Assembly (NCBI GenBank): GCA_027625915.1
Contig: JANTQA010000058.1
Span: forward strand, 62,001 to 126,000
Direction: 5' to 3'
DNA: 64,000 nt
Source: Anaeramoeba flamelloides
Lineage: Eukaryota > Metamonada > Anaeramoebidae
Under the pieces are notes generated by a model. It was not told the origin of the DNA and did not search any database. It was given only the letters and a program-made list of their open reading frames with translations. Within the stretch, counting starts at the first letter, position 1. The number at the start of each line of letters is the position of its first letter. Made by a program: the position numbers and the translations under genes. Of the stretch, positions 4,837 through 61,379 are shown one piece after another.

Positions 4837-4884
4837 CATTTCTACTTTAGTAGAAATGAAAAGCCATCTTTAGATGACCTTCAA
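4837..4884 (+). other. Twin stem-loop, subtype A
   Basis: First hairpin: perfect arms CATTTCTAC / GTAGAAATG around a TTTA loop. Second hairpin: arms of the GGCCATC / GATGGCC type (here AAGCCATC / GATGACCTT, slightly mismatched), also around TTTA. The pair is kept in ten places while the flanks drift. It is followed at once by a G-depleted tail. Function unknown; it could act as RNA or as a cruciform. Confidence 0.85.
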
Positions 4885-5330
4885 AACACCATAAAAAAAC
4901 CTTAACCAAAAACAATTTAACAAACAACAAACAATATCAACAACACACTATTCTCTACATTCAACTCAAAATCATACATATAAATCATAACACACAAATT
5001 TATAGAAAGCATTTACTAATCAAAAACACTCAATCAGAATTCACAATGACATTCAATATACTAAAAAATTTTTATCAAAAAACACAAATAACAAAAACAC
5101 AAATCATTCAACACCAAACAACAATCAATAAATCATTAAATTCATCAATATAAAGTCAAAACAGTCACCTAGACAAAGCAAAAACTCATTAAATAACAAA
5201 AATTTAAATCAACAATTCAAATGTGAACTTATCAGGAATCCATTAACAATTCACAAAAATCAATTAAAGGATCTTAATCTCAATAACATTAAAATTCTAA
5301 AGGGACTTTAATTAAAGATATTCTACAATT
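4885..5330 (+). other. G-depleted A/C-rich tail
   Basis: Directly 3' of the twin hairpin. In 4921-5220 I count 8 G against 63 C on this strand. No open frame and little similarity to the other tails, although all share the skew. A normal, less skewed repeat module (GGTAAACTCGA) starts near 5395. Confidence 0.8.
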
Positions 5331-10690: not shown

Positions 10691-10738
10691 CATTTCTACT
10701 TTAGTAGAAATCAAAAGTCATCTTTAGATGGCCTTCAA
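10691..10738 (+). other. Twin stem-loop, subtype A
   Basis: CATTTCTAC-TTTA-GTAGAAATC followed by a GTCATC-TTTA-GATGGCC hairpin. It has small mismatches relative to the cleaner copies at 34695 and 43631. Immediately followed by an A/C-rich tail. Confidence 0.85.
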
Positions 10739-11210
10739 AGTATCACAACAAATAACCATAATAATAAATAATACATTTTACACAACAAAAATAATTAACA
10801 ATTACCTTCAAACAAAAATCACAAAAATATCTACATAATTATTATACTAAACTTAATAACAAAAATCAAAAAAATTTTCTAGATAGACACACTAATTAAA
10901 ACTTATCCAAAATTACAATCTATTTCTTTCAACAACCAATAGTCCAAACAAATTATTATCAATCAATCAAAATACCAAAAATCAAACCATTCATAAAAAT
11001 CAAAATAAAAAAACTACATTGAGAACACAATTCAAAAAATTACTGTATAAAACAATTGATATCCCTCATAAAAAACACATTCAATTTCAATTCACAATTG
11101 AACTGTGAAATTTTTAACATAAAATTTGAAATTCACAAAATTTTCTCAAAATATTTTGATCCATAATAATCTTAAAATTATGAAGATCACCGTTAATGTT
11201 GATATTCAAC
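10739..11210 (+). other. G-depleted A/C-rich tail
   Basis: Strongly G-poor on the + strand, rich in AACAA/ATCAA-type sequence. No coding potential and not alignable by eye to the other tails. The skew fades toward the GGTAAACTCGA block at about 11280. Confidence 0.75.
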
Positions 11211-15909: not shown

Positions 15910-18340
15910 GTGTTTTTTTTCCTAATGACTCACTTTTATTTAAGTGAGTTGCTTGAATTTGTATGTTCTTTTATTATTTAAACTTTAATACTCTTATTCA
16001 GAAAAGAGTAATAGAGTTTTATTTTTAAATCATAAAATAACTCCTCACTAAAAATACACCATTGTTAGAGAGGAGTAAAGAAAGCAATTCTGAAGTTTTT
16101 TTCCGTGTCGAGTCATCACGAAAAAATCCAAAACACGGAGTACGTGTTCATTTTAGTATTTTAAGGCGTCTACGTCATCGTAAAGTGGTTGAAAAAAGAA
16201 TTTCAACTGATTTAAATTCATTTTTTTTTAATCATATTTCACTTTAAGTGTTTATGAGCGTGTCACGAAAAAAGAATTCAAATTTCTAAACCAAACACAT
16301 CCATTTCAGTTCGTCAGAAATTGAAAGTGAGGAGGAAGAATCGAAGAAAGAAGAAGAAACAAAGAGATACTGTTTTAAATAATAAAAACACAATCATTGT
16401 TTCAAATTCTGTTGAAAAGATTGAAACGAAAACAAGAGTAAAATTATTTTGATAATTAATCCCAAAGAACTCAACTAATATTTATTTTTTTTTTTTTTTC
16501 TTTTCTTTTCTTTTTTTTCAATAGGTGAACCTAAGTAACTTGGTTGAGATTCTAAAAAGAACCCGATATGAATTGTTTTACTTTTCTTGAGTCGAATAAA
16601 GAAAAGATAAAAAAGGGGGGGGCTTTTATCAGATACTATGTCGGAAATGCGGTGCCACTATTTGTGGTTCGCGATACAGTATGAAAAGACATTTATTGAC
16701 TAGTAAACACAGAAGAGGTTTTGGACCAAATGGTCAGACCGCATCAGAGCTAATCATCCAGGATAGTGTAGACAGAGTCACACAAACCTTCCTGCAAGCT
16801 TCTGTGCCAATTGATAAATTTCATCGATTGGTCAATCGAGATTCGATTGTTGCGTTTCGATCACTTGGTTCAATTCCTTCAATAAGAACTGTGCGAAGGT
16901 CAATAGTACGAGTTCTTGAAGAGAAAAAAGAGTAACATGAAAAGAGTACTTGTTGGACAGAAGTTTTGTCTAATGATGGACGAAACTACTGACATCACTT
17001 CACGCAGTTTGTGTGCTGTTGTGGTAACCAACTTGGATTTCCGATTGTGTCTCAAAGTCAAAGAAATGGATAGATGCGATGCTTCTTCATTGCAAAAACT
17101 CCTGGAAGAAACATTACTTGAATACGAGATTGATTGGCAACAAATTACAAATTTTGTTACTGATGGTGCAAGAGCATGTGTTTCATTAGGAAGACGATTA
17201 AACGAACAATATGCAATACAACACACTTTATGTGCTGCACACTTACTGCATCTCATTTCACAAAAAATTAATGGAGTCTTTTCCAAACATCAATGGATTA
17301 TGTAAATTGGTTCGTGTGTTTTTTAAGAGGGGAATACAAGCAGGCCGTAAGAAGCGATGGAGAAGTCAAAACATAACTGACATATCTCTTCCTTCAAAAA
17401 CACGCTGGGGAACTTGGTTAAAATGTGTTTCAGATGTGTTCATGAGACGCAAAAAACTTACTTACTTTTTATAACCAAGGAGGAAACATCAGAAACTGCG
17501 AATCAAATGATAAAGTGTTTGACGAATGAAGGAAGCATACAAGACCTCCGTTTCATTGAATATTTTTCAAGACTATTTACACCTTTGATAGATGGAATTC
17601 AAGAACGACAACTCCGAAAAGATACTTTAAATAGATGGCGAAATATCGAAACTTGGTTATTTAAAATGAGTGGGAAAGATTATGCAAAAATATTCAATTT
17701 ATCGGTTAATAGCGGAACGATGGGGAAAATTATGGATTTTCTCAATAAAATAAGAAGATACAAGCCACGATTGGAAGATGCCAATAGAATCATTTATACG
17801 CATTTTTACTTATGCCCTGAACACATTAAACCACTTATTGAAGACGAAAATAAACTATGTGATAAGATGCGTAAATACCTACGTGGAGATTTGATTGGTC
17901 AGTTCATTGACTTTCAAAATTTTTTGATGAAAAAAGATGAATCTTGTCATTCGCCTCACCTATACTGGACTGGAAAAAAACAAGTTTTTGGAGATTTGTC
18001 CAAACATTTTTTGAACTTGTTAGTTATGGAGCCTACTTCATGTGAAGTTGAAAGAGTCTTTTCACATGTCACTTATATTATGAATCCACGAAGAAATCGA
18101 TTAAATACCGAAAATCTTGAAGCAGAAGTGATTTTCAGTTACAATACAATTAATTAAAATTTCTTTTTCAATTTTTTTTTCATAATCTTTACTCATTTCT
18201 TTCTTAAAATAAATTCATCAAGAAAAATAGAAAATTTCAATAAAGCACCTTTTCTGCACTTTTTTTTCGTTTTTCTTTTTTTTTAGTAACTTTCCGTGTT
18301 AATTTTTCATTTTACACCTTTTGCCTGTCTCTGGATATTT
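15910..18340 (+). mobile_element. hAT-superfamily DNA transposon inserted in the LINE
   Basis: Separates two LINE segments and carries a frameshifted hAT transposase (16621-18157). The region is visibly richer in G+C than its surroundings. I could not fix the inverted ends or the 8-bp target duplication by eye, so the borders are approximate. The 5' part (15910-16620) has no gene, only short repeated motifs such as GTGTC-ACGAAAAAA variants (16105, 16260) that may be subterminal transposase sites. Confidence 0.75.
16621..18157 (+). pseudogene. hAT transposase, three frameshifts
   Basis: Cut-and-paste transposase of the hAT superfamily. A BED-type zinc finger opens the readable frame at 16639-16716 (CRKCG, then MKRHLLTSKH). 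The RNase-H-like core follows: LMMDETTD (about 16970-16993, first catalytic Asp), FVTDGARACVSLGRR (about 17152-17196, second Asp) and CAAHLLHL (about 17233-17256). The C-terminal dimerisation region holds PTSCEVERVFSHV and NPRRNRLNTENLE (about 18028-18120), diagnostic for hAT. The parts lie in three frames, with shifts near 16920-16940 (A-run), 17265-17275 and 17420-17475, so no full protein can be made. There are few substitutions that damage motifs, so decay looks recent. Product length, about 510 residues from the BED finger, fits small hAT enzymes. Confidence 0.9.
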
Positions 18341-19579: not shown

Positions 19580-22500
19580 AAAACAATCAAAAATCATTAT
19601 TATTAAAAGGAAAAAAGAGAGAATATAACAATAAATTTATTAATATAAAAATTTTATCATTTAATGTCAGAGGGTTAAATGAAAAGAATAAAATTTCTAT
19701 TTTAGAATCTTTTTATTAAAATTAAATATTGATATATGTCTTATACAAGAATCAAAAGTTACAAAAAATCCACGATTTATGAATTATTTTTCAATTAATA
19801 AAAAATCTTATGGTAATAAAAATAGAAAAGGTGGTTTATTAATTATAATAAAAATTATTTTTAAAGATTTTACAAGAGAAATATTATTTCCAGATCTTGA
19901 TATTATGGGAATTCAATTCACTGATTTTATCATTATTAACTTATATAAGAGACATGACAGGAATAAAGAAATAAATGAAAAAATCCTTGGTTTATTACAA
20001 AAATATCAAAACCATAATACAATTATCATGGGAGATTTTAATTTGAATGAAAATCAAATAAATTATTTTTCAAAATTCAACTTTAAAATTATTTTAAATA
20101 CTAAGCCAAGTAGAAACAATAATAACATTGATTATTTTATAACTAACTTTAATAACTTAAAATTTATCAAATCAAAAACCATAAAAAATAAAATTAGTGA
20201 TCATAATGCAATATTAAATAAATTTAATATTAATAAAAAACTGGGAAATTAAAAATGTCTACAAAATTAAAGATATTGCAAAGTTTCATGTTGACTTTAT
20301 AAATTTTTATAAAAATAAAAATTATCAATTAAATGGAAAGAATTTTAAAATCTTTAAAAAAACAATTTAAAGTAAAAGAGAGAATTATCTTAAATATACC
20401 AAAAAAAGATTTAAAATTATATAATTTAATTAATAAATTGTATTTGAAAATAATGAATTAATTAAAGAAATTAAAGATAGGAATAGTAAACAATATTTTA
20501 AATTAATAAACCAGATTAATATTGAATTTGAAGAAAATCAAAACTTTTGGAAAAAGCTAAATAGATTAAGAGAAACTTTGAGTAAAATGATTCTCAATAA
20601 TGAAAATATGGAAACTTCATATTTCGGGTTTGTTAAATCTATTAGTAAAAAACCAAAAAAATATATTCTTAATTTTACAGTCAGTTTCACTTTTAAGGCA
20701 CAAACTTTCAACGAAATTTAAGGCACAATAAAAATCTCAAATTAAAGCACAAAATTCAAATTCTAGTAAAAATAAATTGTAAAATAAAAAATTCCAAATT
20801 TTGTGCCTTAATTTGAGATTTTTTTGTGCCTTAAATTTCGTTGAAAGTTTGTGCATTAAAAGTGAAACTGACTGTATTAAAAATTTCACATTAGATAAAA
20901 ATAATTTATTAAATATTAAAATAGAAGAAATATTCTCAATTACTAAAATCAAAGAAATTATCAAATATCAAAAAAATAAATCTGTCAAAGAATTTGATAA
21001 AATTAAACAATATAAAACAATAAAAAATCAAAGTAGTGAATTTTATATAAATTATGAAAACTTTATAAAAACAATCCAAAAAATATTTTTAAATTGGATT
21101 AATGATATTTATCAAAAAAATATTAAATTTATTAAAAAAAGAAATTTATTATTCATTCATAAATCTGGCGATGAAGGTATTCCACTTAATTATAGACCAA
21201 TTTCAATTAATCAAACTCTCCCAAGATTTTTTCTTAAATTGTTATATGCCGGAATTCAAGATTCTTGGGACTTAGTTTCAAAAAAACCAATTTGGATTTA
21301 AAAAAAAATTAGATACTAGAATTGCAGTTTTAAACTTATTGAATGAATATCAAAAAATAAAAAATAAATTTAAAAAAGAAAATATTTATATTGTTACAAT
21401 AGATATACAAAAATGTTTTGACTCTATTCATCATTCATTGATTTTATTATTCAATTAAAAAATTTATAAAAAATGAAATTATTGTAGAATATCTACTTGC
21501 TTATTACTCAAAAGAAGGAATTGGTGTTTACCAAGGAGATCCATTATCTCCTTTATTATTTGGTTTTATTACTCATTTTCTCTTAGAAAAAATTAAATCA
21601 CTAGCGTTACATATTCAAATGTTTGCAGATGATCTGATTTTACTGATGAAAGGATCATTAATAGAAATAAATTTTCAATTACAAAAAATCTTTAAAATAA
21701 TAAAAGATTTTGGAATGAATCCTAATGATGATAAAACTAAAAAAACTTTAATTCCAAAAGAAATTTTATATCTTGGTATTTGGCTAGATAAAAAAACTCA
21801 TTTAAAATTCAACCTTGATAAAGTTAAGGTCAATTTTAAAAAGTTAATCAATATCTTACAACAAAAAAATTTTTTTAATTGTCTAAAAATTCAATTTTTT
21901 AAAGCTGTATTACATAATCAATTATTATATGGAGTAGAAATATTTGATTTAACAAAAACAGATTTTAAAGATATTGATACTTGGATTAATAAAAAAATTA
22001 CAAAATTTTTATTAATCAACCCACACTCACCAAGGCTTATTTATAAAACTGAAGCAAAAATTGATCCCGTAAGGATAACGATATATAAAAGAAGATTTAA
22101 GTTAATTCAAAAATTAAAAATCCTCCATTATGATGAATTAATTAATTATCTTCCTTTTAGAAAAAAAAGAATCAGAAAATATAAATTGGTACTCCAAAAA
22201 TTTAAAACAATTGGAAAATGAACTAGAAAATTTTAGAATTAAAAACTTAGAAAATAGTCCAAGTTGGAAAGTTCAAGAATATCTAAAAATAGTACAAATC
22301 AATAATACAATAAATAAGCAGCAAAGATATTTAAAATGGAAGGGCTCAACTTCAATTTTAAAACTCAGAAATTTTACAAATTACCTTAACAGGTACTCTT
22401 ATGTTATGAATAAAAACAAATCAAAACTATGTGAATTATGTAAAAAAAATAAACAATTTAGATATTATTGAAGATTTAGACCATTTTCTATGGAACTGCT

Positions 22501-28778: not shown

Positions 28779-31700
28779 CTAATAAAATTCCTCAAAAAAA
28801 TTATTCAGAAAGTCCCTAAACTCCTTATAACCCAGCCAATCTTTTTTATATCTAGCAGGTATTTTGTACTGTTTAATTACTGTGTTATCTTCAGCATTAA
28901 TAGTATTGGTATTAGGTACATTTGTTTTTGATTTGGGATTAGTTGTATTGGTCTTATTGAAACATTTATCATATCTTTTCATTACAGCTTCAATATAAAC
29001 ATTATAGTTAGAGTATGTATATCTTTTATCATTCGGAATGTAGTAGATTTGTTCATTTGTATAAAAATTTAAAAATGAATTTAATAATATTTCAAGATCA
29101 TCAGAAATTGAAAATTGAAATTTAAAATCTAAATGTTTCCCAACCATACATCTTGGTCCAAGACAACAAGTGCCACCATGAAATTTTTTCTGTTGATTTG
29201 TTTTTAAATGAGCTGAATCGAAATCAACTAATTTTGGGATATACTCAAATGTTGTAACATTATTCTTCCTATTCTTCTTGGTTGTGATAAAATTCGTTTG
29301 ATCATCATTATCTTTATCATCATTATCAATTTTATTATTTTTAATTGTATTTTCCTTCTTTTCAACCATAATATTTGCAACACGAAGATCTCTATGATAA
29401 TAACCCTGGTTATGGAGATTCTCTACTATATTGATTATAGATAACCAGAATTTTTTATGTTTAAAGTTTGGTAAATTATAAGCTTTATTTACTTTTTCTT
29501 GTTTTTCTTTTGTCCATTTTTCATATGAAACCCAATAAGGCATACGATGATACAATTTTGTTGACATTAAGAAATTTTGAAGAATTGGTTTATTATCATT
29601 CAAATTAATTAACAATTTATTTATATTTTTAAAATATTGTTGTTTGATAATTGAAGTTTCTTCTTCTTCTTCTTCTTCAGCTATTAAAGGATATAAAAAG
29701 CTTTTCTCTAAAAATCTTTTTGAAATCAACATTTTGCGATTTGAAATTTCTTGTTGGCAATTATTTAAAATTTGAGTTACATCCGTGCCAAAGAATTGTT
29801 TAAGTATTAAAACTTGTGGTGATTCTATAATTTTGTCTTTTTTTACTTTTTCTTTTACTTTTCCTTTTTCTTTTTCTTTTCCTTTTCCTTTTTCTTGTCT
29901 TAATTTTTGTTTTTCTTCTTTTTGTTTAAATGTATTAATCTCTTTTGATCTCGTTAATTTATAAACAAAGGCATAAGCGCCCTTTCCTAAACATTGAGAA
30001 ATGGAGTAATCAAAATTATTAAATTGAAATTTCTGTAAACGAAAAAATTCTGATTTAAAGTTTGTTGGATCAGAGAAAAAAAGATTTGGGAAGGAAACTA
30101 CATCACTCTGAGTTGGTATTTCTAGATCCCCTTCAGAAGAAACTTCTTGACATATTATTTGAAGTTGTTTTAAATCGGTGAGAAATCCTATTATAGGTGT
30201 TTGAAGAAAGGATAAAGCATTTGCAAGTGTTTTACAATAATTTGCTGTTTGTGATACTCCCTTTGTACTTAATGGTGATGGTCTTTTCTTATTATTTGAT
30301 ATTGGAGAGGGCAGTTTGACTTCAAATATTGCAAGTGTTTTATTTGTTGGGATTTTGTTACACACATTCTTGAAATCTTTCCAATTTTTGAGGTAATTGT
30401 CAAATTTTTGTTTATTGTTTTTTGCAATTTGAATTAATTTATTCCATACCTTTTTTTCCTTTGATAACGAAAAAATATTTTCTTGATCTTTCTCTTTCTC
30501 TTTCTCCTTCTCCTTCTCCTTCTCCTTCTCCTTCTCCTTCTCCTTCTCCTTCTCCTTCTCCTTCTCCTTCTCCTTCTCCTTCTCCTTCTCCTTCTCCTTC
30601 TCCTTCTCTTTATCTTTCTCTTTATCTTGATCTTTATCTTGATCTTTATTTTTCCTTTTCCTTTTCCTTTTCTTCAATTGATTGGGATATTTATTGAAAT
30701 ATTTGTAAAAATTTTTCATGGATGTTGTAAATAATCTCCATTCAAAGTATTCCATAATTTGATTTCTTTCAATTTCAAAAGCAAATTTGAAGGATTTATG
30801 TACAATTAAAAAATCTGGTTTATCATTGTAAAAGGCTCTTTGTTCAATTTCTCCTGTCCAAAGAAATCTTATATCATCAAGATCTTTTTCAAAATTTAAG
30901 AAATATTCCATTAATTTGATTTGAAAATCTTTTTCATTCTTATATTTCCCATTTGAAATCTCTGTTAATCTTTGGATATTTTTGAAAATTTCATTACTTT
31001 TATCAATTTTGTTCTTGTTCTGGTTGTTTAAAGAGTTAATAATTTTTTCTATAATTTTTAGATCAAATTTTTGGAAATGATTATTAATATGTTCAAGAGG
31101 GTTAGGCCCTTTAGTTGGTACATAAATTGTAGACGAGCTTGCATTTTTAGATGGTGTTCCTCTATTTTGAGAATTTTCACTTGATGTTTTGAAATCTGAA
31201 TCTTTCATGTTTCGATCTTTCAAAGATAAATTGGTAATTTTTTTATGTATTTCTTTTTCTTTTTCTTTTTCTTTATCTATTTCTTTTTCTTGTTCTTGTT
31301 CTAAAATTTGTTTTTTTGTTTCTTTTATTTCTTTTTCTTGTTCTAAGATTTTTTTTTCTTGTTCTTGAATTTGCTTTTTTTGTTCTTGAATTTGTTTTTC
31401 TTGTTCTTTGATTTTCTTTGACAAACTTTTTTGTTCTTGCATTAAGCTAAAAAGAGCATTTATATCAATGTTTTTGCCTTCCAATAAATTTTCCATTTTA
31501 CTTAAGCAATCATTAACTTGGTTGTCAAGAATACCTTTCCCATTCTTGATCAATTCTTTAAGTTGATTGTAATAAACAGAAAATTCATTTCGTTTTTCTT
31601 TAGCAATTTGTAAAAAGATTGTATTTACTTTTTTTTCATTTAACTTTTCTTTTTTTTCATGGAGCTTTGAAAGTTCTTTTCTCATGTCTTGTAAATTTTT

Positions 31701-31922
31701 TTTGTCTTGTTGTAGATTTTTTCTCATGTATTGTAAATTTTTTTTGTCTTGTAAAAGGATCTTGAATCGTAATTTCTTTTCTTTTTCTTTTCGAGAATAT
31801 TTTGAACGAGTTTTTTTTTTTTTTTTTGGTGTTTGGAATACCATTTTTTTTTCTTTTTCATTTTCTGTTTCACTTTCACTGTTACTTCCTTGATGGATTT
31901 GATCTTTTCTTTTCCTCAACAT
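28779..31922 (-). CDS. Crinkler-like PD-(D/E)XK nuclease-protein kinase fusion, 1047 aa
   Basis: Single uninterrupted frame, the only long intact gene in the window. Residues ~1-40 are basic (KKKKKTRSKYSRKEKEKK, nuclear-localisation-like). Residues ~45-240 form a Lys/Glu/Gln coiled coil with QEKQIQEQ-type heptads. Residues ~340-600 look like a restriction-endonuclease-fold domain: KPDFLI at ~367, then IFEVKLP at ~530 (ExK), then TANYCKTLANAL and PIIGFLTDLKQ. About 57 residues of Lys-Glu repeat (~421-477) lie between the Asp and ExK motifs. Residues ~640-1000 are a protein kinase: LGKGAYAFVYKL (glycine loop, ~644), LILKQF (Lys), YYHRDLRVANIMV (catalytic loop, ~841), LVDFDSAH (DFD in place of DFG, ~899). 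A low-complexity insert and a Gly-Thr segment GGTCCLGPR follow. Nuclease-kinase pairs are typical of Crinkler/CR-type proteins in fungi, oomycetes and free-living protists. Whether this one is an effector, a defence factor or selfish is not shown. No signal peptide seen. Confidence 0.85.
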   Translation of the reverse strand: MLRKRKDQIHQGSNSESETENEKEKKMVFQTPKKKKKTRSKYSRKEKEKKLRFKILLQDKKNLQYMRKNLQQDKKNLQDMRKELSKLHEKKEKLNEKKVNTIFLQIAKEKRNEFSVYYNQLKELIKNGKGILDNQVNDCLSKMENLLEGKNIDINALFSLMQEQKSLSKKIKEQEKQIQEQKKQIQEQEKKILEQEKEIKETKKQILEQEQEKEIDKEKEKEKEIHKKITNLSLKDRNMKDSDFKTSSENSQNRGTPSKNASSSTIYVPTKGPNPLEHINNHFQKFDLKIIEKIINSLNNQNKNKIDKSNEIFKNIQRLTEISNGKYKNEKDFQIKLMEYFLNFEKDLDDIRFLWTGEIEQRAFYNDKPDFLIVHKSFKFAFEIERNQIMEYFEWRLFTTSMKNFYKYFNKYPNQLKKRKRKRKNKDQDKDQDKEKDKEKEKEKEKEKEKEKEKEKEKEKEKEKEKEKEKEKEKEKEKDQENIFSLSKEKKVWNKLIQIAKNNKQKFDNYLKNWKDFKNVCNKIPTNKTLAIFEVKLPSPISNNKKRPSPLSTKGVSQTANYCKTLANALSFLQTPIIGFLTDLKQLQIICQEVSSEGDLEIPTQSDVVSFPNLFFSDPTNFKSEFFRLQKFQFNNFDYSISQCLGKGAYAFVYKLTRSKEINTFKQKEEKQKLRQEKGKGKEKEKGKVKEKVKKDKIIESPQVLILKQFFGTDVTQILNNCQQEISNRKMLISKRFLEKSFLYPLIAEEEEEEETSIIKQQYFKNINKLLINLNDNKPILQNFLMSTKLYHRMPYWVSYEKWTKEKQEKVNKAYNLPNFKHKKFWLSIINIVENLHNQGYYHRDLRVANIMVEKKENTIKNNKIDNDDKDNDDQTNFITTKKNRKNNVTTFEYIPKLVDFDSAHLKTNQQKKFHGGTCCLGPRCMVGKHLDFKFQFSISDDLEILLNSFLNFYTNEQIYYIPNDKRYTYSNYNVYIEAVMKRYDKCFNKTNTTNPKSKTNVPNTNTINAEDNTVIKQYKIPARYKKDWLGYKEFRDFLNNFFEEFY
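30502..30609. repeat. CTCCTT hexanucleotide array inside the coding region
   Basis: About 17-18 almost perfect copies of TCCTTC; on the minus strand these are in-frame GAGAAG/GAAGGA-type codons for Lys-Glu dipeptides. Array length is always a multiple of six, so slippage changes protein length without breaking the frame. It sits inside the predicted nuclease domain. Confidence 0.95.
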
Positions 31923-33090
31923 CTTGGTTGAAAAGTTGATAAGAAAGGATTAACTAAAAAAAGCAAGAACAAGGAAATAAATTAAAAAAAGGAAAGAATC
32001 GGGGTAATAAATTAAAAAAACTATGTAAATGTTTAAAAAATGATAATTTTATAAAAAAAATAATGAATCCATTGAAACAAAAAAAAATTCAAGTTATTAT
32101 CAATATAACATTAATTTTGATTCAAAACAAATAAAAAACTTCACGTGTTGATAAAAAATTATTTGATTTTCAAAAGTAAAATTGGGAAAATTTTTTCATA
32201 AGATAATTTTTTTTACATTTTATTTTTTAACGAATAGTTTTTTTTTTATTTTAACTCAGAGATTCATTTCTGATAAAATTTATTCTTATTGGATTATTTC
32301 TCTTAAAACACAATTTATTGTGTTAGAGACAAATTGGGTTGCAGTGTAGCGGGAAAGGTTTTGTGGAATTTTGCATTTGGTGGTCTTTGATAAATAAAAT
32401 TAAATTACTGTTGAGAGAAAAATGTTATTGAGAGAAAAATAGTTGGATAGTAATTTTTATTGGGAACATTACTTGAAAATGATTTTTAATTTCAATCAAT
32501 TCTGAAATAACTAAAGAAAATAACAATATTATACTTATTAGAATAATGCTTAATGTAATTCTACTTTTTTCAAAACCTTCTCTCTTATAATCTAAAGTAA
32601 ATTTAAAAATTACCATTTTCAGAATTAATAGTAAACTTTACTAAAACTTGGCAAATTTGTTAAAATAGCATAATCTACTTTAGTTATCATCCATTCAAAT
32701 GAGTATTCTACACACACCACAGATTAATGAACTTGTAATACATGTAAACCTGGATTTTTATAAAATTCAACTAGTTATCAATAGGATTTGATTTTCAATT
32801 TTGCTAATGTTCACAATTAAAAATGGTGGAAAATCATTTTTCTTTTTCCCACAGTTTTCTCTATCAACAGTTAAATAAAAATAAATTTTATTGAAAAAAT
32901 TTGGAAATATATATCTATTTGATATTTTGGCCGGAACCATGTGGTTGAATAATTTTATCTTTTAAATACCTGATTTTTTGGTATATGTGGTTTGGATATT
33001 ATCATATTTGAAATTGTTTTTGGAAGATTGTTATTTATTGAATTTTATAAATGACCTGATTTTTATTATAAAAATAATTTAATTTCATTT
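31923..33090. other. Spacer with a repeat fragment
   Basis: Upstream region of the minus-strand gene (promoter not recognisable). At 32285-32400 a fragment of the 3.7-kb unit appears (AAAACACAATTTATTGTG, GGGAAAGGTTTTGTGGAATT), as at 5815-5910. The rest is AT-rich with no gene. Confidence 0.55.
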
Positions 33091-33138
33091 CATTTCTACT
33101 TTAGTAGAAATGATAGGCCATCTTTAGATGGCTTGATG
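33091..33138 (+). other. Twin stem-loop, subtype B
   Basis: CATTTCTAC-TTTA-GTAGAAATG, then ATAGGCCATC-TTTA-GATGGC, then TTGATG. Subtype B differs from A by ATGATAGG in place of ATGAAAGG and by (C)TGATG in place of CTTCAA after the second hairpin. It heads a very G-poor tail. Confidence 0.88.
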
Positions 33139-33840
33139 CAAATAACATGAACATACACAAACACACATTATTTCATTTCCAAAAACAACAAATGCCATGA
33201 TAAGCCACACTAAAAAAAACAATACAAATAAAACAATACAAAATGAAATAAAAACACTAATAAAATCAACAAATACCAAAAAATAAAAATCTAAAAAAAA
33301 AAAAACACAATAATTAATAACAAACAATTACTAAAAATATATTATACTACATTAATAACAATAAATATTTTAAATTACTATTAAATACATAAAATATCAT
33401 ATCAAAATATTACTAAAAACAAAAATATTACTAAAAACAAAAATAATACACAAATAATACTATATCAATTAATATAATCATTTTCAACAAACATAAACAC
33501 ATTATATAAACACTTACAAATATTATAAAACAATTATAAATAAAATTAACTTTTCGAAAACAGATTAAAACTCCAATCAATTTAAATTATTTAAAAAGAC
33601 TAATATAAAATTTAATTAAATCAAAAATAATTCCATAAATAACATCATATAAAACAACACCCAATATAAAAAATAACACTCATACCAAATAGAGATATTA
33701 CCACAAAAAGATTCTAATTTCGAATTAAAAACTAAAAATTTCTTATAACTCAAATTCTCATACAATTAATAAATTAAAAACTACAAAAATTTTACCTTTA
33801 ATTCAAGATAACCTTAATATTTTCAACTATTTGTTGAAAA
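33139..33840 (+). other. G-depleted A/C-rich tail (most extreme copy)
   Basis: On the + strand 33301-33540 contains no G and 30 C in 240 bases; the flanking hundred bases have only a few G. Sequence is ATA/ACA/AAC-rich with no reading frame of interest. The skew ends near 33840, where GAAAAGAGATC and AAGTCGAAAAGAAAGTAATC begin; that junction is also found in the inverted copy at 59340-59390. Confidence 0.88.
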
Positions 33841-34740
33841 GAGATCTATAAAAGTCGAAAAGAAAGTAATCTTCAAATAATGTTAAGTCTAAACAACTCC
33901 CCAATAGTGAGGTTCAAGATGAGTAGGTAATTATGAATATAGAGTAAGTTTAATTTGGGTATTTAAATATTTATTCTGAATTTTTTTTTTTTTTTTTTTT
34001 TTGAAGAGAAACCTTGAGTTGGAAAAGTATAAGAATTCAGACATTATAACTTAAAAAGATTAATATATATGTATATTATATGAACAAAATATAATAAATT
34101 TGGACACATTTTAAAACAGTTGAAAGAATAATACAACTGTATTTTACATCCAATTTGTAAATAATTTTGATTTTAAAAAAATATTATAAAATACATTCAA
34201 GTCTTTATTGTTTTTTTTTTCATTTTATTTCCCTTTTTTACACTTTATTAATCTATTCGATTAGATCTCGAAAATTTCTTCTGATTTAACAATAGAAGAT
34301 TAATATTAAATCTGTAGAATAGAAAAATCATATACAATTAGTTGATGATATCTTTACATTTGATCGATCAAAAATTGTTGGTGAATTTTAACAAATTAAC
34401 CTAAATACAATTTATTTTCCAAACTCATTCATTTTGGACATTCACCATCTTGGACACACTCCAATTTTTAATTTTTAGAAAATTTAGAGTTTTTTCAGGG
34501 ATATTACTTTTTCTGAATTATAAAAACTAAACATGAAGTTTATTTTTTTAGATCATTTCTAAATATTTTTACAAGTCAGTGGATTAATTCACAAAAAACA
34601 ATTTTTTTTTTTTTTTAGGGATCTTCTTTTAACATTTAAGAGAGAATGTAAATTTTTATACTTTGATTTTAATTGTAGACATATATAATAATCTCATTTC
34701 TACTTTAGTAGAAATGAAAGGCCATCTTTAGATGGCCTTC
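33841..34740 (+). repeat. Lead modules of repeat copy 4, ending in a twin hairpin
   Basis: GTCGAAAAGAAAGTAATCTT module, a degraded G-run module (GGTTCAAGATGAGTAGG), poly-T, TTGAGTTGG, short TA run, then the ~640-bp lead segment ending with the hairpin at 34695. The same order appears inverted at 58500-59390. Confidence 0.75.
34695..34740 (+). other. Twin stem-loop, subtype A (perfect)
   Basis: Both stems perfect: CATTTCTAC / GTAGAAATG and AAGGCCATC / GATGGCCTT, each with a TTTA loop. It lies 1.6 kb after the subtype B pair at 33091 and heads a second G-poor tail. Confidence 0.92.
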
Positions 34741-35030
34741 AAATAATCTTCAAAAAAATACAACATCAAACATATCAAACCACAACAAATTTTCTCTCAC
34801 TAACCCACTAAACACAAAACAAACATACAAATAAACAAAATGACACAATTACCTAAATTAAATAAAACACACACACTTAATAATAACAAACAATTGAAAC
34901 AAAAATAAACAACCCAATACACAACTTCTTCCATTCTTCAATACATAAATTTAAAATTTAAACACTAATCTTAATCATACAAAAACTATCTTCAATTTCC
35001 TCAAATTCAGGCTCAAATTATTTGGAATAA
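34741..35030 (+). other. G-depleted A/C-rich tail
   Basis: 34741-34980 has 2 G against 55 C. No coding potential; it ends as the GGTAAACTCGA-type block approaches (about 35166). Confidence 0.85.
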
Positions 35031-42570: not shown

Positions 42571-43058
42571 CAAAATACTAATAATTTGACCTACAATTTA
42601 AAATAGTTGAAAGAATAACAATACATTAATTTTACATTTAATTTGAAAATAATTTTAATTTTTACAAAAATATAAAAATCATTTTTTCATCATTCTATTT
42701 TTTTATTTTTCATTTTCTAAATTTTCTAATCTCAATCTGTTTCGATCAGGAAATTTTTTTCCAGATATAGTTTCCAAAAGATTAATGTTGAGTTTGTTGA
42801 ATAGAAAAAATCTCATATAATGAGTTGATGGTATTCCTACATCAGATAGATCAACAATTGTTGGTGGAATTTCAACAAAATTACCTATTATAATTTTTTG
42901 TTCTAACTAGTTCATTTCATCATTTCTTCATTTCTTCATGCTGGAAATCATCAGATTTTTATTTTTTTAGAAAATTTAATGTTTTTTCAAGTATTAGTTC
43001 TTTTGAATTATCAACTCTAATTTGAAGTTTATTGTTTAGATTATTTCTGAATAAATTA

Positions 43059-43515
43059 CAGTCTTTCCAAGGCAACTCTAAAATTTTATATAAAACGAAA
43101 TTGAATTTCTTATTCTAATTTTCCATTTTCAAAATATTCGGAAATAAGAGTTATTATTCCAAAAAAAATTTTAATAATAAATGAGCTATTATTCAAAATT
43201 TTGAATCATCAAAAAAAAAAACAAAAATTGAAGATTCTTGAAACACTTTAAAAATATTGTTCAAAAAAGGTAAATTTTTAAAGATCAGTAAATATTGATA
43301 TTTTTTTTAAACTTTTTTATACCGATAATTTCAAAGTTTCATGGGATCTTGATTTTTTTTTTCGATTTTACAAAATTTAAATAATAAAACATTTATTATT
43401 ATGAATTTTTTTTGGAATAATAACTCTTATTTCTGAATATTTTGAAAATGGAAAATAAGAATAGAAAACTCCATTTTGTTTTATATAAAATTTTATGGTA
43501 GCCTTGGAACTGCTG
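43059..43515. repeat. 457-bp MITE with ~125-bp inverted arms (third family)
   Basis: Left arm CAGTCTTTCCAAGGCAACTC, right arm TAGCCTTGGAACTGCTG; the inner arms match well (GGAAATAAGAGTTATTATTCC against GGAATAATAACTCTTATTTC). TA on both sides. The lead module is continuous without it: AAATTA joins AGTAAATGG, compare 34567. CAG ends and TA duplication suggest a Tc1/mariner-mobilised MITE; no second copy here. Confidence 0.88.
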
Positions 43516-43630
43516 TAAGTAAATGGATTGATTCAAATAAATTTCATTTTTAGGCTCTTCTGTTAACATGTTCAAGAGAGAATATAAATTTATATTCTTT
43601 GATTTTAATTGTAAATATAGATAATAATCT

Positions 43631-43678
43631 CATTTCTACTTTAGTAGAAATGAAAGGCCATCTTTAGATGGCCTTCAA
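43631..43678 (+). other. Twin stem-loop, subtype A (perfect)
   Basis: Same as the copy at 34695: both stems perfect with TTTA loops. Followed by the longest G-poor tail. Confidence 0.92.
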
Positions 43679-44530
43679 AAGACAACACTAACTAAAAAAC
43701 ACAAACTCAATCATTTTCAAAAATTCCTACAACACACAATCTCACCTCTAACAATATTTCAAATCGAAAACAAACGAATTTTTACTTGCTCATTATCAAA
43801 AACACATACATTCAATCTAATAATCTAATAAACTAAAAATACATAATAAATCAAAATATATCCAATATTTTAAACTTTTAATGCACAAACTCTCGACCTA
43901 CTTTCAGACACAACAAAATCAAAAATTAATACACAACATTCAGAATTTAACTTCTCCAATTTATATTTCCAAAAATTGAATTTCTAATCTTAATTTGAGA
44001 TTTCCTTTCTTCACAATATTTCGTTAAATTTTTATTATAAAAAAGTAGAACTTACTGAAAATCTACTTATATATCAAAAACTACATCTATAATTCAGACA
44101 ATAACAAGATCATAATCAAATTTAATATAACATTTAAAACACAAAACAATAACTAATAAAGCATACAATTACGAAATTTAACATTAGAAATTATGATCCT
44201 TAAATTCGAATTGAGTAACTCAATTCCAGATACATAACTTTACCCACATTTTCGTAAAATGTGTACCTTAATACTCTAAGTGACAAGAATAAACATTCTA
44301 ACAACTCAATAAAAAATCGACAAAAACACATTATCTCAACAATAAAAAACTCATTATCATTAACTCAAAACAAAACCAAACTGTATCAACCATACCATTA
44401 AATAAAAAACACACTCAAAAATCAAAAAAACTCAAAATATCCAATACAATTCAAATCTACCATTCAGAAATACTTTGAAAATTCACAAAATTGTTACAAA
44501 CAATTTTTATCCCATTCTCATTAAAATTAT
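43679..44530 (+). other. G-depleted A/C-rich tail with an embedded decayed MITE
   Basis: About 850 bases, strongly C over G on the + strand (43801-43860 has no G). It contains a recognisable but G-stripped CAGTCAG-family MITE at about 43866-44060. No coding. Confidence 0.82.
43866..44060. repeat. G-stripped CAGTCAG-family MITE
   Basis: Order and spacing follow the MITE: TTTTAATGCACAAACTCTC, TTAATACACAACATTC, TAATCTTAATTTGAGATTT, then ATATTTCGTTAAATTTTTAT and AACTTACTG. Most family G positions in the AAGG and GTGCC words are replaced (AAGG becomes AATG, CAGA or AATA), while A/T positions are well kept. Confidence 0.7.
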
Positions 44531-52139: not shown

Positions 52140-52312
52140 TTTGATTTTGTGCCTTAATGGGTTTTTTTGTGCCTTATTTCTTATTTTTTCCTGTGCCTTA
52201 AAAGAGCACAGGACTGTAACTAGAATTTAAATATTTTACATTAATTTGATATTTTTATTGTTTATTTATTTACTTTGCAAGTTTGTGCCTTAAAAGTGGA
52301 ACTGACGTATCT
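52140..52312. repeat. MITE fragments
   Basis: Several GTGCCTTA words (52155, 52171, 52193, 52285), ACTGTAACTAGAATTT and a closing AAGTGGAACTGACG; scrambled remains of one or two family members. Confidence 0.65.
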
Positions 52313-52318
52313 ATTAAA

Positions 52319-52370
52319 CCCAATTCCACTTAAGTAGAAATGATAGGCCATCTTTAGATGACCTGATGAA
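52319..52370 (+). other. Twin stem-loop, subtype B (first stem damaged)
   Basis: The left arm of hairpin 1 is altered (CCACTTAAGTAGAAATG). Hairpin 2 is ATAGGCCATC-TTTA-GATGACC followed by TGATGA. A MITE inserted nine bases later has separated it from any tail. Confidence 0.75.
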
Positions 52371-52378
52371 AAATTATA

Positions 52379-52574
52379 CAGTCGGTTTCACTTTTAAGGC
52401 ACAAACTTTCAACGAAATTTAAGGCACAAAAAAATCTCAAATTAAAGCACAAAATTTGGAATTTTTTTTTTACAATTTATTTTTACTAGAATTTGAATTT
52501 TGTGCTTTAATTTGAGATTTTAATTGTGCCTTAAATTTCGTTGAAAGTTTGTGCCTTAAAAGTGAAACTGACTG
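52379..52574. repeat. CAGTCGG/CAGTCAG-family MITE (196 bp)
   Basis: CAGTCGGTTTCAC to GTGAAACTGACTG, TA on both sides. Confidence 0.92.
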
Positions 52575-53090: not shown

Positions 53091-53140
53091 CATTTCTACG
53101 TTAGTAGAAATGATAGGCCATCTTTAGATGGCCTGATGAA
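53091..53140 (+). other. Twin stem-loop, subtype B
   Basis: CATTTCTAC-GTTA-GTAGAAATG (loop GTTA), then ATAGGCCATC-TTTA-GATGGCCTGATGA. The tail (53141-53300) is G-poor but short compared with the others. Confidence 0.88.
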
Positions 53141-57959: not shown

Positions 57960-58495
57960 TGATAGATAAAATAAAATAAAAATTAAATGTTGATCCAAAT
58001 TGGAGTATATTGATATATAACTTCCCTTCTAAATTTTAATGAGAATTGGATCAAAATCCCATTTTGATAATTTTGTGGATTTTCAAAGAATTGTTTGAAA
58101 AAGAACGATATTAGATTGTTAATTTGAAATTTTTTAATTTGAATTTGTTTTTTGTTTTGTTAATAGCATTGTGTAAAGTTTGGGTGATATATTGTATTGA
58201 TTATAAATTTGTATTGTTGATATTGTTGTTAATGTTTGTGATATTTTTTGGTTTTTAATTTTTTGTTGTGTTTTTGGTGTATTGTTTTTATTATTATATG
58301 TGATTTGTTGTTATATTTTTTATTTTTGTGTGTTTGTATGTGGTTTGTTGTTGATTTGTTGTTTGTGTTGTGAAATGGTTGTTTATATTGTTTTATAATA
58401 TTATTTGTTTTATTTGTGATTTATTATATTTTAATGTGTTTGATTTGTATTTGTTGATAGATTTATTTTTTGTATTTTATTTATTTGTTTTTTTA
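57960..58495 (-). other. Tail lacking C on + (lacking G on the minus strand)
   Basis: 58168-58498 has no C at all in 331 bases of + strand. TTG/TGT/TTT-rich. It is the inverted equivalent of the tails at 33139 and 34741. No coding. Confidence 0.9.
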
Positions 58496-58540
58496 AGACC
58501 ATCTAAAGATGGACTTTCATTTCTACTAAAGTAGAAATGA
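58496..58540 (-). other. Twin stem-loop, subtype A (inverted)
   Basis: On + : ACCATC-TAAA-GATGG, then CATTTCTAC-TAAA-GTAGAAATG. Orientation agrees with the C-free tail to its left. Confidence 0.9.
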
Positions 58541-59390
58541 GTTTATTAGATATGTTTAAAATTAAGATCAAAAAGTATATGAATTTTAAATTCTCTCTCA
58601 AATTTAAATAGAGTCTAAAAATTAAAAATTTTTTTGAATTAATACTATGACTTGGAATATTTAGAAATGATCTCAAAAAAAATAAACTTCAGGATTAGGG
58701 TTGATAAATCAGAAAAAGAAATGTACCTGAAAAAACTATAAGTTTTCGAAAAAAATTAAAAATTGAGGTGTCCAAAATAATATGAAATGATGAACGAGTT
58801 AGGATAAATAATTGTATTATTAAATGTGTTGAAATTTCAACAATTTTTGTTGATCGATCAAATATAAATATATCATCTCCTAATTATATGTGATTTTTCT
58901 ATTCAACAAACTCAACTTTAATCTTTTATTCTTCAATCAAAAGAAATTTTCGAGATCATATGAAAAAAATAACTTTAAAGAGTAAAAAATGAAATGAAAA
59001 AAAACAATAAAGATTAAAAATTAATTTCATATTTTTATAAAATCAAAATTATTTACAAATTGGATGTAATGGCAGTATTTTTATTCTTTCAAGTGTTTAA
59101 ATTGTTCAAAATTTTTTATATTTAGTTCAGATATGTGATATATTTATATCTTTTTAAGTAATTATTTCTGAATTCTTTGATGTACCCAACTCATGGTATT
59201 TTTACTTTTCTATAGAAAAAAAAATTCTGTATTGTTATTTAGTTACCAAACCTAACTTTAGCTTATATAAATTAGTGGCTACTTCCCAAAACTCCTAAAA
59301 TCGGGGGTTATTTATGCTTAACTTGATTTGAAGATTACTTTCTTTTCGACTTTTATTGATCTCTTTTCAACAAATTTGAATATTGGAAAG

Positions 59391-60180
59391 TAATTTGAAA
59401 TGTAATGTAAAGTTTTTAGAGTTTTTAATTGAATAATAGTATTTGGATTTGAGTTATAAGAAATTTATCGTAATTGATTCTAAATATGTATTTTTTTGGT
59501 GGTATTTGCTGTATGATGTATAAGTGTTAATTTTTAATTTTGGTCTTCTTATATATGATGTTATTGATGATTAAATTTATTATTGAATGAATTAAATTTT
59601 GTATTATTTTGATATTGAAGTTAAAGTTGTTTGTAATTGTTTTAGAATTATTTGTTAAGTGTATTTATGATTAGTATGTGTTTGTGTTTTAGTATTTTGT
59701 TAATTGTTGTGTTATGATTGAAAATTATATATATATATATATATATTTATATATACAGTCAGTTCCACTTTTAAGGCACAGACGATCAACGAAAAGTAAG
59801 TTACAATAAAAAATCTCAAATTAAGGCGCAAAATTTGAAATTTTTTTTTTAACAATTTATTTTACTACAATCTGAATTTTGTGCTTTAATTTGAGATTTT
59901 TTATTGTAACTTACTTTTCGTTGATCGTTTGTGCCTTAAAAGTGGAACTGACTGTATATGTTTATTATTTAATGTTGTTTTGTTGAGTTACGATTTTTAA
60001 TGATTATAGTTAATGTTTTAATAAGGTTTTATTTTTATTGATTATTAATAATTGTTATTTTGTTATTATGAATTGTTGTTTTGATGTTGTATTATGTTTT
60101 GTATGTTGTTTATATTTGAAAATAATGTTGTGTTTTATAGTTATTTGTTTTGTGTTCGTATAATTGTGTTGAAATTTGTA
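59391..60180 (-). other. C-depleted tail (G-depleted on the minus strand), interrupted by a MITE
   Basis: Only scattered C in TTG/GTT-rich sequence on both sides of the MITE at 59756-59954. Runs from the subtype B hairpin at 60181 leftward to the GAAGATTACTTTC junction near 59385. Confidence 0.82.
59756..59954. repeat. CAGTCAG-family MITE, variant arms (199 bp)
   Basis: Arms carry a linked block of changes: GACGATCAACGAAAAGTAAG on the left and CTTACTTTTCGTTGATCGTT on the right, exact mirror images. TA array at the left border. Its G and C content is normal although it lies in a C-poor tail. Confidence 0.93.
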
Positions 60181-60227
60181 TCATGCCATCTATAGATGGC
60201 CTATCATTTCTACTAAAGTGGAAATGA
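60181..60227 (-). other. Twin stem-loop, subtype B (inverted)
   Basis: On + : TGCCATC-TATA-GATGGCCTATCATTTC, then TACTAAAGTGGAAATG. Hairpin 1 has one mismatch (GTGGAAATG). It lies 1.68 kb from the subtype A pair at 58496, mirroring the 33091/34695 spacing. Confidence 0.88.
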
Positions 60228-60919: not shown

Positions 60920-61336
60920 ACAGAGAAAATTTTGTTTTTTTTTGGGTATATATTTTCATTTTATTTTTGAAGTTATATGTTTTTATAAGGTTATATTGAT
61001 TTTTAGTTATTGTGATTTTTTTTTGTTTTTTATTGTATTGATAATTTTTGATGGAAATATGTTGAATAATATTTTTGAATATTGGTTGTGTTGATATTTT
61101 TGATATGAAAGTTATGCTATTTGAATTGTTTGGTTTTCATTTTTGTTTAATATTTTTTGAGTGTTTAATGTTGTTTTTTGAGATTTGATAGATTATGTTT
61201 TTGTTATATTGTGTTTATTTTATTGTAGTTATGTATTTTATATTTATGTCTTATGGAGAATTGTATTTTATGATGAGATTGATTTTGTAGAGTATATATG
61301 TGTGTATTTGTAATGTTTTGTTGAAAATTTCTGTAG
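60920..61336 (-). other. C-depleted tail
   Basis: TTTG/GTT-rich with rare C on +; belongs to the inverted subtype B hairpin at 61337. No coding. Confidence 0.75.
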
Positions 61337-61379
61337 GAAATCTAAAGATGGCGTATCATTTCTACAAAAGTAGAAATGA
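61337..61379 (-). other. Twin stem-loop, subtype B (inverted)
   Basis: On + : AAATC-TAAA-GATGGCGTATCATTTC, then TACAAAAGTAGAAATG. Second hairpin weakened (AAATC against GATGGC); first intact in its arms. Confidence 0.82.

What the first reader, a model, noticed from the sequence alone, without database searches (positions are those of the whole stretch)
33091..34980. Twin stem-loop that heads tails with one base missing
Ten copies of a two-hairpin motif (CATTTCTAC-TTTA-GTAGAAATG, then GGCCATC-TTTA-GATGGCC) occur here. Well-preserved copies are followed, always on the same side, by 300-850 bases in which the strand carrying the hairpins has almost no G. Counts by eye: 33301-33540 has 0 G and 30 C; 34741-34980 has 2 G and 55 C; 4921-5220 has 8 G and 63 C; the inverted copy has no C over 58168-58498. 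Tails do not align with each other, so the skew, not the sequence, is conserved. I know of no standard repeat class with this design. Possible causes: strand-specific cytosine deamination on the other strand (R-loop or single-strand exposure starting at the hairpins), a replication or rolling-circle intermediate, or selection for an unstructured, G-free transcript.
Basis: partly seen in the sequence, partly recalled or inferred. Interest (0 to 1): 0.88.

Follow-up and report, generated by a model that had tools for sequence, protein, structure and literature searches.

The report
Twin hairpins heading hypermutating G-less tails
In the amoeba Anaeramoeba flamelloides a repeated pair of small DNA hairpins marks the start of a few hundred bases that appear to change several times faster than the DNA around them and in which new G's are rarely written, which looks like a locally targeted mutation process.

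Summary
In detail: all four base counts are exact, and 36 of 44 twin-hairpin copies in the 280 kb first examined head a G-less segment. The genome is the metamonad Anaeramoeba flamelloides; about 220-250 copies lie largely in small contigs and near ends of large ones (lists partly capped). Conserved DNA lies on both sides; the tail is hypervariable. Close paralogues show why. Just past the hairpins divergence jumps from 2% to 15%, stays near 10-17% for about 400 bp, then falls to 2-5%. Ten of 11 families with mostly intact hairpins show a tail excess at P<0.001; 0 of 7 with mismatched hairpins do, though one has a weaker excess. Of 185 polarised tail substitutions 8 create G, against 30 of 170 in controls; A-to-C is enriched; the matrix predicts the observed 1-2% G. 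Simple cytosine deamination is not enough: 130 of 185 changes are transversions among A, C and T. Best reading: the twin hairpin starts error-prone resynthesis of its own strand, inserting A, C or T. The local hypermutation is well supported comparatively; enzyme, timing and purpose are inferred. No raw reads were examined.

The parts
33091..33133 (+). twin hairpin, T type (ATA spacer); the last base of hairpin 2 is T, so a G-T wobble closes it
33139..33789 (+). G-less tail, 651 bp with G12 C97 (HMM segment)
34095..34694 (+). conserved A-type upstream block, 76-84% alike in most of its genome matches
34695..34737 (+). twin hairpin, A type, both stems perfect (9 and 7 pairs, TTTA loops); folds at -12.9 kcal/mol as DNA, z -8.25
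34738..35005 (+). G-less tail; HMM segment 34736-35005 has G2 C64
35090..36300 (+). conserved A-type downstream block with a TTTGGTTCC microsatellite; longest open stretch in +450..+1500 is 88 codons
4837..4879 (+). twin hairpin, A type, stem 2 broken (5 of 7 pairs)
4880..5221 (+). G-poor tail; no significant excess divergence among 3 paralogues (5/275 vs 7/698)
10691..10733 (+). twin hairpin, A type, stems 8 of 9 and 5 of 7 pairs
10744..11097 (+). G-poor tail; no excess divergence among 4 paralogues (3/274 vs 14/703)
43631..43673 (+). twin hairpin, A type, intact
43682..43938 (+). G-less tail; 77 of 277 columns vary among 5 paralogues against 26 of 704 in the flanks
52321..52363 (+). degenerate twin hairpin inside a small inverted-repeat element, tail absent
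53091..53133 (+). twin hairpin, T type, loop GTTA; tail weak (G15 C52 in 300 bp)
58497..58539 (-). twin hairpin, A type, one mismatch in stem 2
58111..58494 (-). G-less tail on the minus strand, G1 C70 in 384 bp
60184..60226 (-). twin hairpin, T2 type, one mismatch in each stem
59953..60179 (-). G-less tail, probably continued at 59375-59720 beyond an inserted element
61336..61378 (-). twin hairpin, T1 type, stem 2 broken (4 of 7 pairs)
60930..61323 (-). G-less tail, G4 C71 in 394 bp

Best explanation
The twin hairpin is a cis-acting initiator of local hypermutation. SHOWN (comparatively): in most families whose hairpins are intact the 300-450 bp 3' of them have accumulated substitutions with 3 to 19 times the odds of the flanking DNA, starting within about 10-30 bases of hairpin 2; the substitutions write A, C or T but seldom G on the hairpin strand, and that spectrum by itself predicts the near absence of G. 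INFERRED: the hairpin pair is extruded as DNA and nicked or broken at its 3' foot; the 3' end primes resynthesis of the hairpin strand for some 450 nt by a low-fidelity polymerase that fills many positions without reading the template, as in bypass of abasic sites (A-rule plus Rev1-like C insertion). Copies whose hairpins decay mutate less and keep the G-poor tail as a relic. It may be a by-product of a fragile hairpin or a deliberate diversifier; I cannot tell which.
For: Variable columns per site in 10 intact families: 0.016-0.020 from -50 to +50 (0.016-0.051 further upstream), 0.152 at +50-100, 0.122 at +400-450, 0.020-0.053 from +500 on; 6 mismatched families show no step, 0.005-0.050 throughout. 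Pair C5_10430/C47_10484: 1 of 399 upstream, 21 of 275 tail, 2 of 297 downstream. C55/C71: 0 of 400 upstream, 12 of 278 tail, 3 of 204 downstream. Ten of 11 intact families significant at P<0.001, 0 of 7 mismatched (Fisher P 2.5e-4; Mann-Whitney on log odds ratios P 0.006). In the C5/C23 block the intact tail has 26 of 300 at 5740-6040 while the tail of a broken copy 3.7 kb away has 2 of 421. Polarised events: to A 63, C 65, T 49, G 8; predicted equilibrium A .52 C .27 G .011 T .19; observed at +60-260 in intact copies A .55 C .19-.21 G .011-.017 T .23-.24. To-G 8 of 185 vs 30 of 170 control, P 5e-5; A>C:A>T 39:32 vs 6:27, P 6e-4; both survive leaving out any one family. G depletion fades with distance. 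Loop TTTA reads TAAA in single sister copies, compatible with flipping of an extruded stem-loop.
Against: Hairpin dependence is a correlation over 18 families and not absolute. Intact F_18508 shows no excess (19/275 vs 35/500); the intact pair C5_5646/C47_5714 none (5/277), its family's signal coming from C23; in the C5/C47 block the broken 1946 copy has 13 of 287 at 2140-2440, more than the intact 5646 tail (9 of 450 at 5740-6190). Mismatched F_58610 shows a weaker excess (17/275 vs 8/452, P 0.002), F_60226 is borderline (5/215 vs 2/398, P 0.055); pooled mismatched families OR 1.85, P 0.001. Among A/C/T changes the C<->T share does not differ from control (P 0.22). Predicted C (.27) exceeds observed. 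Only 12 ancestral G sites enter the G-loss rate. Stems show no compensatory pairs. No reads, RNA or enzyme data; nick, polymerase and direction of synthesis untested. Flanks could be partly homogenised by conversion or polishing.
Confidence: 0.5

Rival explanations
1. Strand-specific cytosine deamination (AID/APOBEC-like or spontaneous, in an R-loop or other single-stranded state) on the strand opposite the hairpins, perhaps followed by a second error-prone repair phase as in somatic hypermutation.
For: G on the hairpin strand is the most mutable base (7 of 12 sites; 8 of 15 in the separate count of one family) and is nearly absent; a two-phase version would add A/T changes.
Against: G-to-A is 4 of 185 events; A-to-C, A-to-T, T-to-A, C-to-A and T-to-C make up 155 of 185. 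With almost no target C left on the opposite strand, deamination alone would hardly drive continued fast change.
Confidence: 0.15
2. Selection for a G-free, unstructured transcript or ssDNA: hairpins and G-free tail form one noncoding RNA, sequence otherwise free to drift.
For: The tail RNA folded is predicted unpaired (0 kcal/mol for one 140-nt piece); the hairpins are conserved across flank types that look unrelated by eye.
Against: Purifying selection cannot raise the rate above neutral, yet in intact families tails vary at 418/2961 against 220/6622 in flanks, while mismatched families are much closer (54/1681 vs 71/4027); A-to-C is enriched, which G avoidance does not predict.
Confidence: 0.13
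3. Artefact of age: flanks are homogenised by gene conversion or by short-read polishing across near-identical copies while unique tails keep their true age.
For: The A. flamelloides assemblies are Nanopore polished by Racon, Medaka and five Pilon rounds (passages of PMC11550330), and the repeats are numerous.
Against: At 8-20% true divergence reads should not cross-map wholesale; conversion from other families would raise flank divergence, since their flanks are mostly 76-88% alike; in the closest pairs the differences are mainly substitutions, not Nanopore-type indels; mismatched families show little tail excess; the special spectrum is unexplained.
Confidence: 0.12
4. Mutagenic retrohoming: the tail is rewritten from an RNA copy by an error-prone reverse transcriptase primed at the hairpin foot, a eukaryotic parallel to diversity-generating retroelements.
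For: Sharp, one-sided tract anchored at a hairpin; endonuclease and reverse-transcriptase domains are encoded in the window (19692-22221).
Against: Errors are not adenine-specific (A has the lowest rate, 0.109); tails of different families mostly do not align, so no common template repeat is seen; tails are noncoding.
Confidence: 0.1

Closest known systems
Repeat-induced mutagenesis at hairpin-forming inverted repeats in yeast (PMC3681665, passages including the abstract seen)
   Same: A hairpin-forming sequence raises mutation nearby through error-prone (Pol zeta) repair; complex mutations included.
   Different: There mutagenesis reaches 8 kb on both sides and was seen in replication-deficient strains; here one side only, about 440 bp, with a sharp start and few new G's. 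The yeast signature is G.C to T.A and G.C to C.G.
Somatic hypermutation by AID (features recalled)
   Same: Fixed start, limited tract, high rate in otherwise conserved surroundings; G on one strand highly mutable.
   Different: Noncoding, hairpin-anchored, transversion-rich, few new G's; no deaminase looked for.
Diversity-generating retroelements (features recalled)
   Same: Variable tract next to a hairpin and a conserved boundary.
   Different: Not adenine-specific, no template repeat seen, no variable protein.
Abasic-site bypass spectrum (PMC4167244, abstract read)
   Same: In human cells A preferred, then T and C.
   Different: That is a lesion-bypass assay; here only the pattern of inserted bases resembles it, and C is as frequent as A among events.

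Membership tests
AID/APOBEC-type hypermutation | Changes dominated by C-to-T on the edited strand (G-to-A on the hairpin strand) | tested here: not met
   G-to-A 4 of 185 polarised events
AID/APOBEC-type hypermutation | A cytidine deaminase acting on the locus | not tested
   no search for a deaminase was made
Diversity-generating retroelement | Adenine-specific substitutions relative to a template repeat | tested here: not met
   rates A .109, C .176, T .225, G .583; tails of different families mostly do not align
Diversity-generating retroelement | Variable region in a protein-coding gene | tested here: not met
   at least one stop in each of six frames in 44 of 44 tails of 350 bp
Repeat-induced point mutation (RIP) | C-to-T transitions across whole duplicated sequences | tested here: not met
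   49 transitions, 136 transversions; excess confined to the tail
Repeat-induced mutagenesis at inverted repeats | Elevated mutation near a hairpin-forming repeat | tested here: met
   10 of 11 intact families
Repeat-induced mutagenesis at inverted repeats | Both sides, over kilobases | tested here: not met
   upstream 0.016-0.051, tract ends near +490
Repeat-induced mutagenesis at inverted repeats | Dependence on Pol zeta and Sae2 | not testable with these tools
   needs genetics
Structured RNA gene | Compensatory changes in the stems | tested here: not met
   36 distinct 43-mers from 74 copies; variants are one-sided breaks, no double change restoring a Watson-Crick pair; no Rfam family at gathering score in the window

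The most novel reading that the evidence does not exclude
A dedicated eukaryotic diversification device: a conserved twin DNA hairpin recognised by a nuclease-polymerase machinery that repeatedly rewrites the next 450 bases of its own strand with A, C and T, keeping hundreds of noncoding repeats near chromosome ends permanently different from one another, for instance to block ectopic recombination or to make a private repertoire of unstructured RNAs or barcodes.
Probability: 0.25. Interest if true: 0.93.

Novelty: new variant of a known kind. Interest (0 to 1): 0.82.

Why it matters
Hypermutation confined to a fixed tract by a short cis signal is known in few systems. A hairpin-anchored, one-sided, G-avoiding version in a metamonad would be a new way to target mutation, gives a natural experiment (hundreds of copies with intact and decayed signals), and makes directly testable how hairpins guide error-prone synthesis and how strong strand skew can arise by mutation alone.

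Tried and rejected
Coding tails: rejected, stops in all six frames. Known RNA family in the window: none at gathering score. tRNA: none. A mobile element was considered; I did not search systematically for element ends. TTAGGG arrays (4 units, exact) are absent from the assembly, so nearness to chromosome ends rests on position in contigs only. My guess midway that the host was a Hydra was wrong; one search names Anaeramoeba flamelloides. Kinase-like ORF: no homologue for residues 560-1050. The exact twin-hairpin pattern is absent from the viral and prokaryote collections. An early impression that changes among A, C and T are abnormally poor in transitions was dropped: the C<->T share is not different from control. 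Literature: eight searches; in the listed results (8-15 papers each) I saw no description of these repeats or of hairpin-anchored, G-avoiding hypermutation. Only listings were seen except PMC11550330 and PMC3681665 (passages) and PMC4167244 (outline with abstract).

Selection of families: 52 of the 78 copies held fell into the 18 families of 2-5 close copies of the final tail/flank counts; they were found by similarity upstream or around a copy or by similarity of tail pieces, the latter biased to tails that are still alignable. Of 10 tails queried, five had paralogues, which I fetched; of 10, three had good ones, of which I fetched members of two (for one of them 2 of the 5 found) and left one (C5_29261/C66). 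C35_55814 was compared but left out of the family counts. 'Intact' allows one mismatched copy per family (F1, F_57415, F_16003401, F_15992680); the one family with a TTCA loop 2 and perfect stems (F_13680) counts as intact. In four families the downstream flank was not used because the copies are not homologous there (F_13680, F_60226, F_61378, F_15963142). The polarised spectrum used 5 of the 16 families then held; with three copies the minority base is simply called derived. F_15963142, though 3 copies, was left out (two are nearly identical). Controls were the flanks of those families (far flank of 4 of the 5) and 3 of the 6 mismatched families. Columns next to gaps were dropped, and 11 tail columns were unresolved. 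The chi-square test of a fixed draw uses frequencies estimated from the same events.

Full report
OBSERVATION. The window holds ten copies of a twin hairpin, CATTTCTAC-TTTA-GTAGAAATG, three bases, GGCCATC-TTTA-GATGGCC; none is expected by chance. A three-state composition HMM, blind to the hairpins, puts the start of the G-less segment between 3 bases before and 11 bases after the end of hairpin 2 in most copies; 36 of 44 copies in the 280 kb examined have such a segment of at least 220 bp, and 36 of 45 such segments have a hairpin pair at their 5' end.

HOST AND DISTRIBUTION. A transposase ORF of the window matches ten proteins, all named Anaeramoeba flamelloides, at 81-99% over 24-84% of its length; two of the contigs listed have exactly the lengths of contigs C33 and C24 of this genome. 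Which strain it is, no call states. The genome is 254 Mb in 76 contigs and the window lies in a 176-kb contig. Hairpin 1 with up to 2 mismatches gives 217 forward and 214 reverse matches, an intact copy matching on both strands; a 30-mer through hairpin 2 gives 247 with up to 3 mismatches, control 0. Of the 55 perfect T-type copies, all listed, the 16 near the start of contigs that other calls show to be long (C13 5, C24 2, C37 1, C48 4, C75 4) are on the minus strand and the 11 near a far end (C33 1, C48 10; the length of C48 was not fetched) on the plus strand, so their tails point outwards. Exceptions: two minus copies near the right end of C70, plus copies at 22 kb on C48 and 6 kb on C43, and some interior copies. 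No TTAGGG array is in the assembly.

ANATOMY. Copies fall in three flank types: A, with about 600 bp conserved upstream and about 1.1-1.5 kb downstream, and T1 and T2 with other flanks; several loci repeat the order T1-T2-A. By eye only the hairpin pair is shared across types. Between conserved flanks the tail has no match to other copies in most cases. Tails have stops in all frames. The perfect pair folds at -12.9 kcal/mol as DNA (z -8.25) and -20.7 as RNA; a tail piece is predicted unfolded. Stem variants are one-sided breaks without compensation, so sequence, not merely pairing, may be recognised.

HYPERMUTATION. Near-identical repeat blocks allow a rate test. C5_10430 and C47_10484 differ at 1 of 399 upstream sites, 21 of 275 tail sites and 2 of 297 far sites. 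Five copies of the 43631 family vary at 77 of 277 tail columns and 26 of 704 flank columns; the youngest pair, C55 and C71, has 0 of 400 upstream and 12 of 278 in the tail. Pooled over 10 intact families, variability is 0.016-0.020 from -50 to +50, hairpins included, 0.152 at +50-100, still 0.122 at +400-450, and 0.020-0.053 from +500 on; further upstream it is 0.016-0.051. In 6 families with mismatched stems there is no step (0.005-0.050). Final count, with two later families: 10 of 11 intact families have a tail excess at P<0.001, 0 of 7 mismatched ones; Fisher P 2.5e-4, Mann-Whitney P 0.006; pooled intact tail 418/2961 vs flank 220/6622, mismatched 54/1681 vs 71/4027. Against the rule: F_18508, intact, 19/275 vs 35/500; the pair C5_5646/C47_5714, intact, 5/277; F_58610, mismatched, 17/275 vs 8/452 (P 0.0018), mostly at +50-100; F_60226 borderline; and in the C5/C47 block the broken 1946 tail has 13 of 287 at 2140-2440 against 9 of 450 in the intact 5646 tail, whereas C5/C23 shows the opposite, 2 of 421 against 26 of 300. 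So stem integrity matters but the dependence is graded and rests on correlation.

SPECTRUM. Parsimony on five families gives 185 tail events: A>C 39, A>T 32, A>G 5, C>A 25, C>T 15, C>G 1, G>A 4, G>C 1, G>T 2, T>A 34, T>C 25, T>G 2. The equilibrium of this matrix is A .52 C .27 G .011 T .19; intact tails at +60-260 have A .55 C .19-.21 G .011-.017 T .23-.24, so the lack of G needs no selection, though C is over-predicted. Creation of G is rarer than in controls (8/185 vs 30/170, P 5e-5) and A>C commoner (39:32 vs 6:27 against A>T, P 6e-4), robust to leaving out any family. The choice of new base is compatible with a fixed draw independent of the old base (chi-square P 0.13-0.53, with frequencies from the same events). 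Events lie within 2 bp of the previous one of their lineage in 34 of 159 cases. The C<->T share is not different from control (P 0.22).

READING. A sharp 5' edge at the hairpins, G depletion that fades with distance and a spectrum of A, C, T but seldom G fit resynthesis of the hairpin strand from the foot of hairpin 2, with insertion opposite uninformative template positions; abasic bypass in human cells inserts A, then T and C (PMC4167244, abstract), and Rev1 prefers dCTP (abstract start of PMC9130138 in the listing). The loop TTTA reads TAAA in hairpin 1 of C47_10484 and hairpin 2 of C23_9027, which is compatible with flipping of an extruded DNA stem-loop. These mechanistic steps are inference. 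The closest described process is mutagenesis at inverted repeats in yeast, two-sided and kilobases long (PMC3681665, passages).

LIMITS. All evidence is from one polished long-read assembly (methods in passages of PMC11550330). The contrast between families with intact and mismatched stems argues against a general artefact, but reads must be checked.

Noticed in passing
window 43057-43519: A self-complementary element of about 460 bp just upstream of the 43631 copy matches 35 other places at 83-87%, mostly far from contig ends, among the 40 candidates scored; looks like a MITE-type family unrelated to the arrays.
   Followed up: no
window 52280-52400: Small element with inverted termini (GTGCCTTAAAAGTGGAACTGAC) that carries a degenerate twin hairpin without a tail; T2-type copies have a similar AAAGTGGAACTGA just before the hairpins.
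   Followed up: partly
window 28779-31949, minus strand: ORF of 1056 aa, very K/E-rich, with a kinase-like C-terminal part by eye; no Pfam family, and no homologue found for residues 560-1050.
   Followed up: partly
C47 10484 hairpin 1; C23 9027 hairpin 2; C33 15967462 and 16022864 hairpin 1: The tetraloop reads TAAA instead of TTTA in single copies, as if a whole stem-loop had flipped.
   Followed up: partly
L021, contig C33 near 16028074: A degenerate hairpin pair on the minus strand with G-less segments on both sides, 16027755-16027934 on minus and 16028058-16028446 on plus; possibly an inverted duplication.
   Followed up: no
window 16600-18157: hAT-type transposase pieces with about 37% G+C in a 23% G+C region, 81-99% identical to ten other proteins of the species: perhaps recently active.
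   Followed up: no
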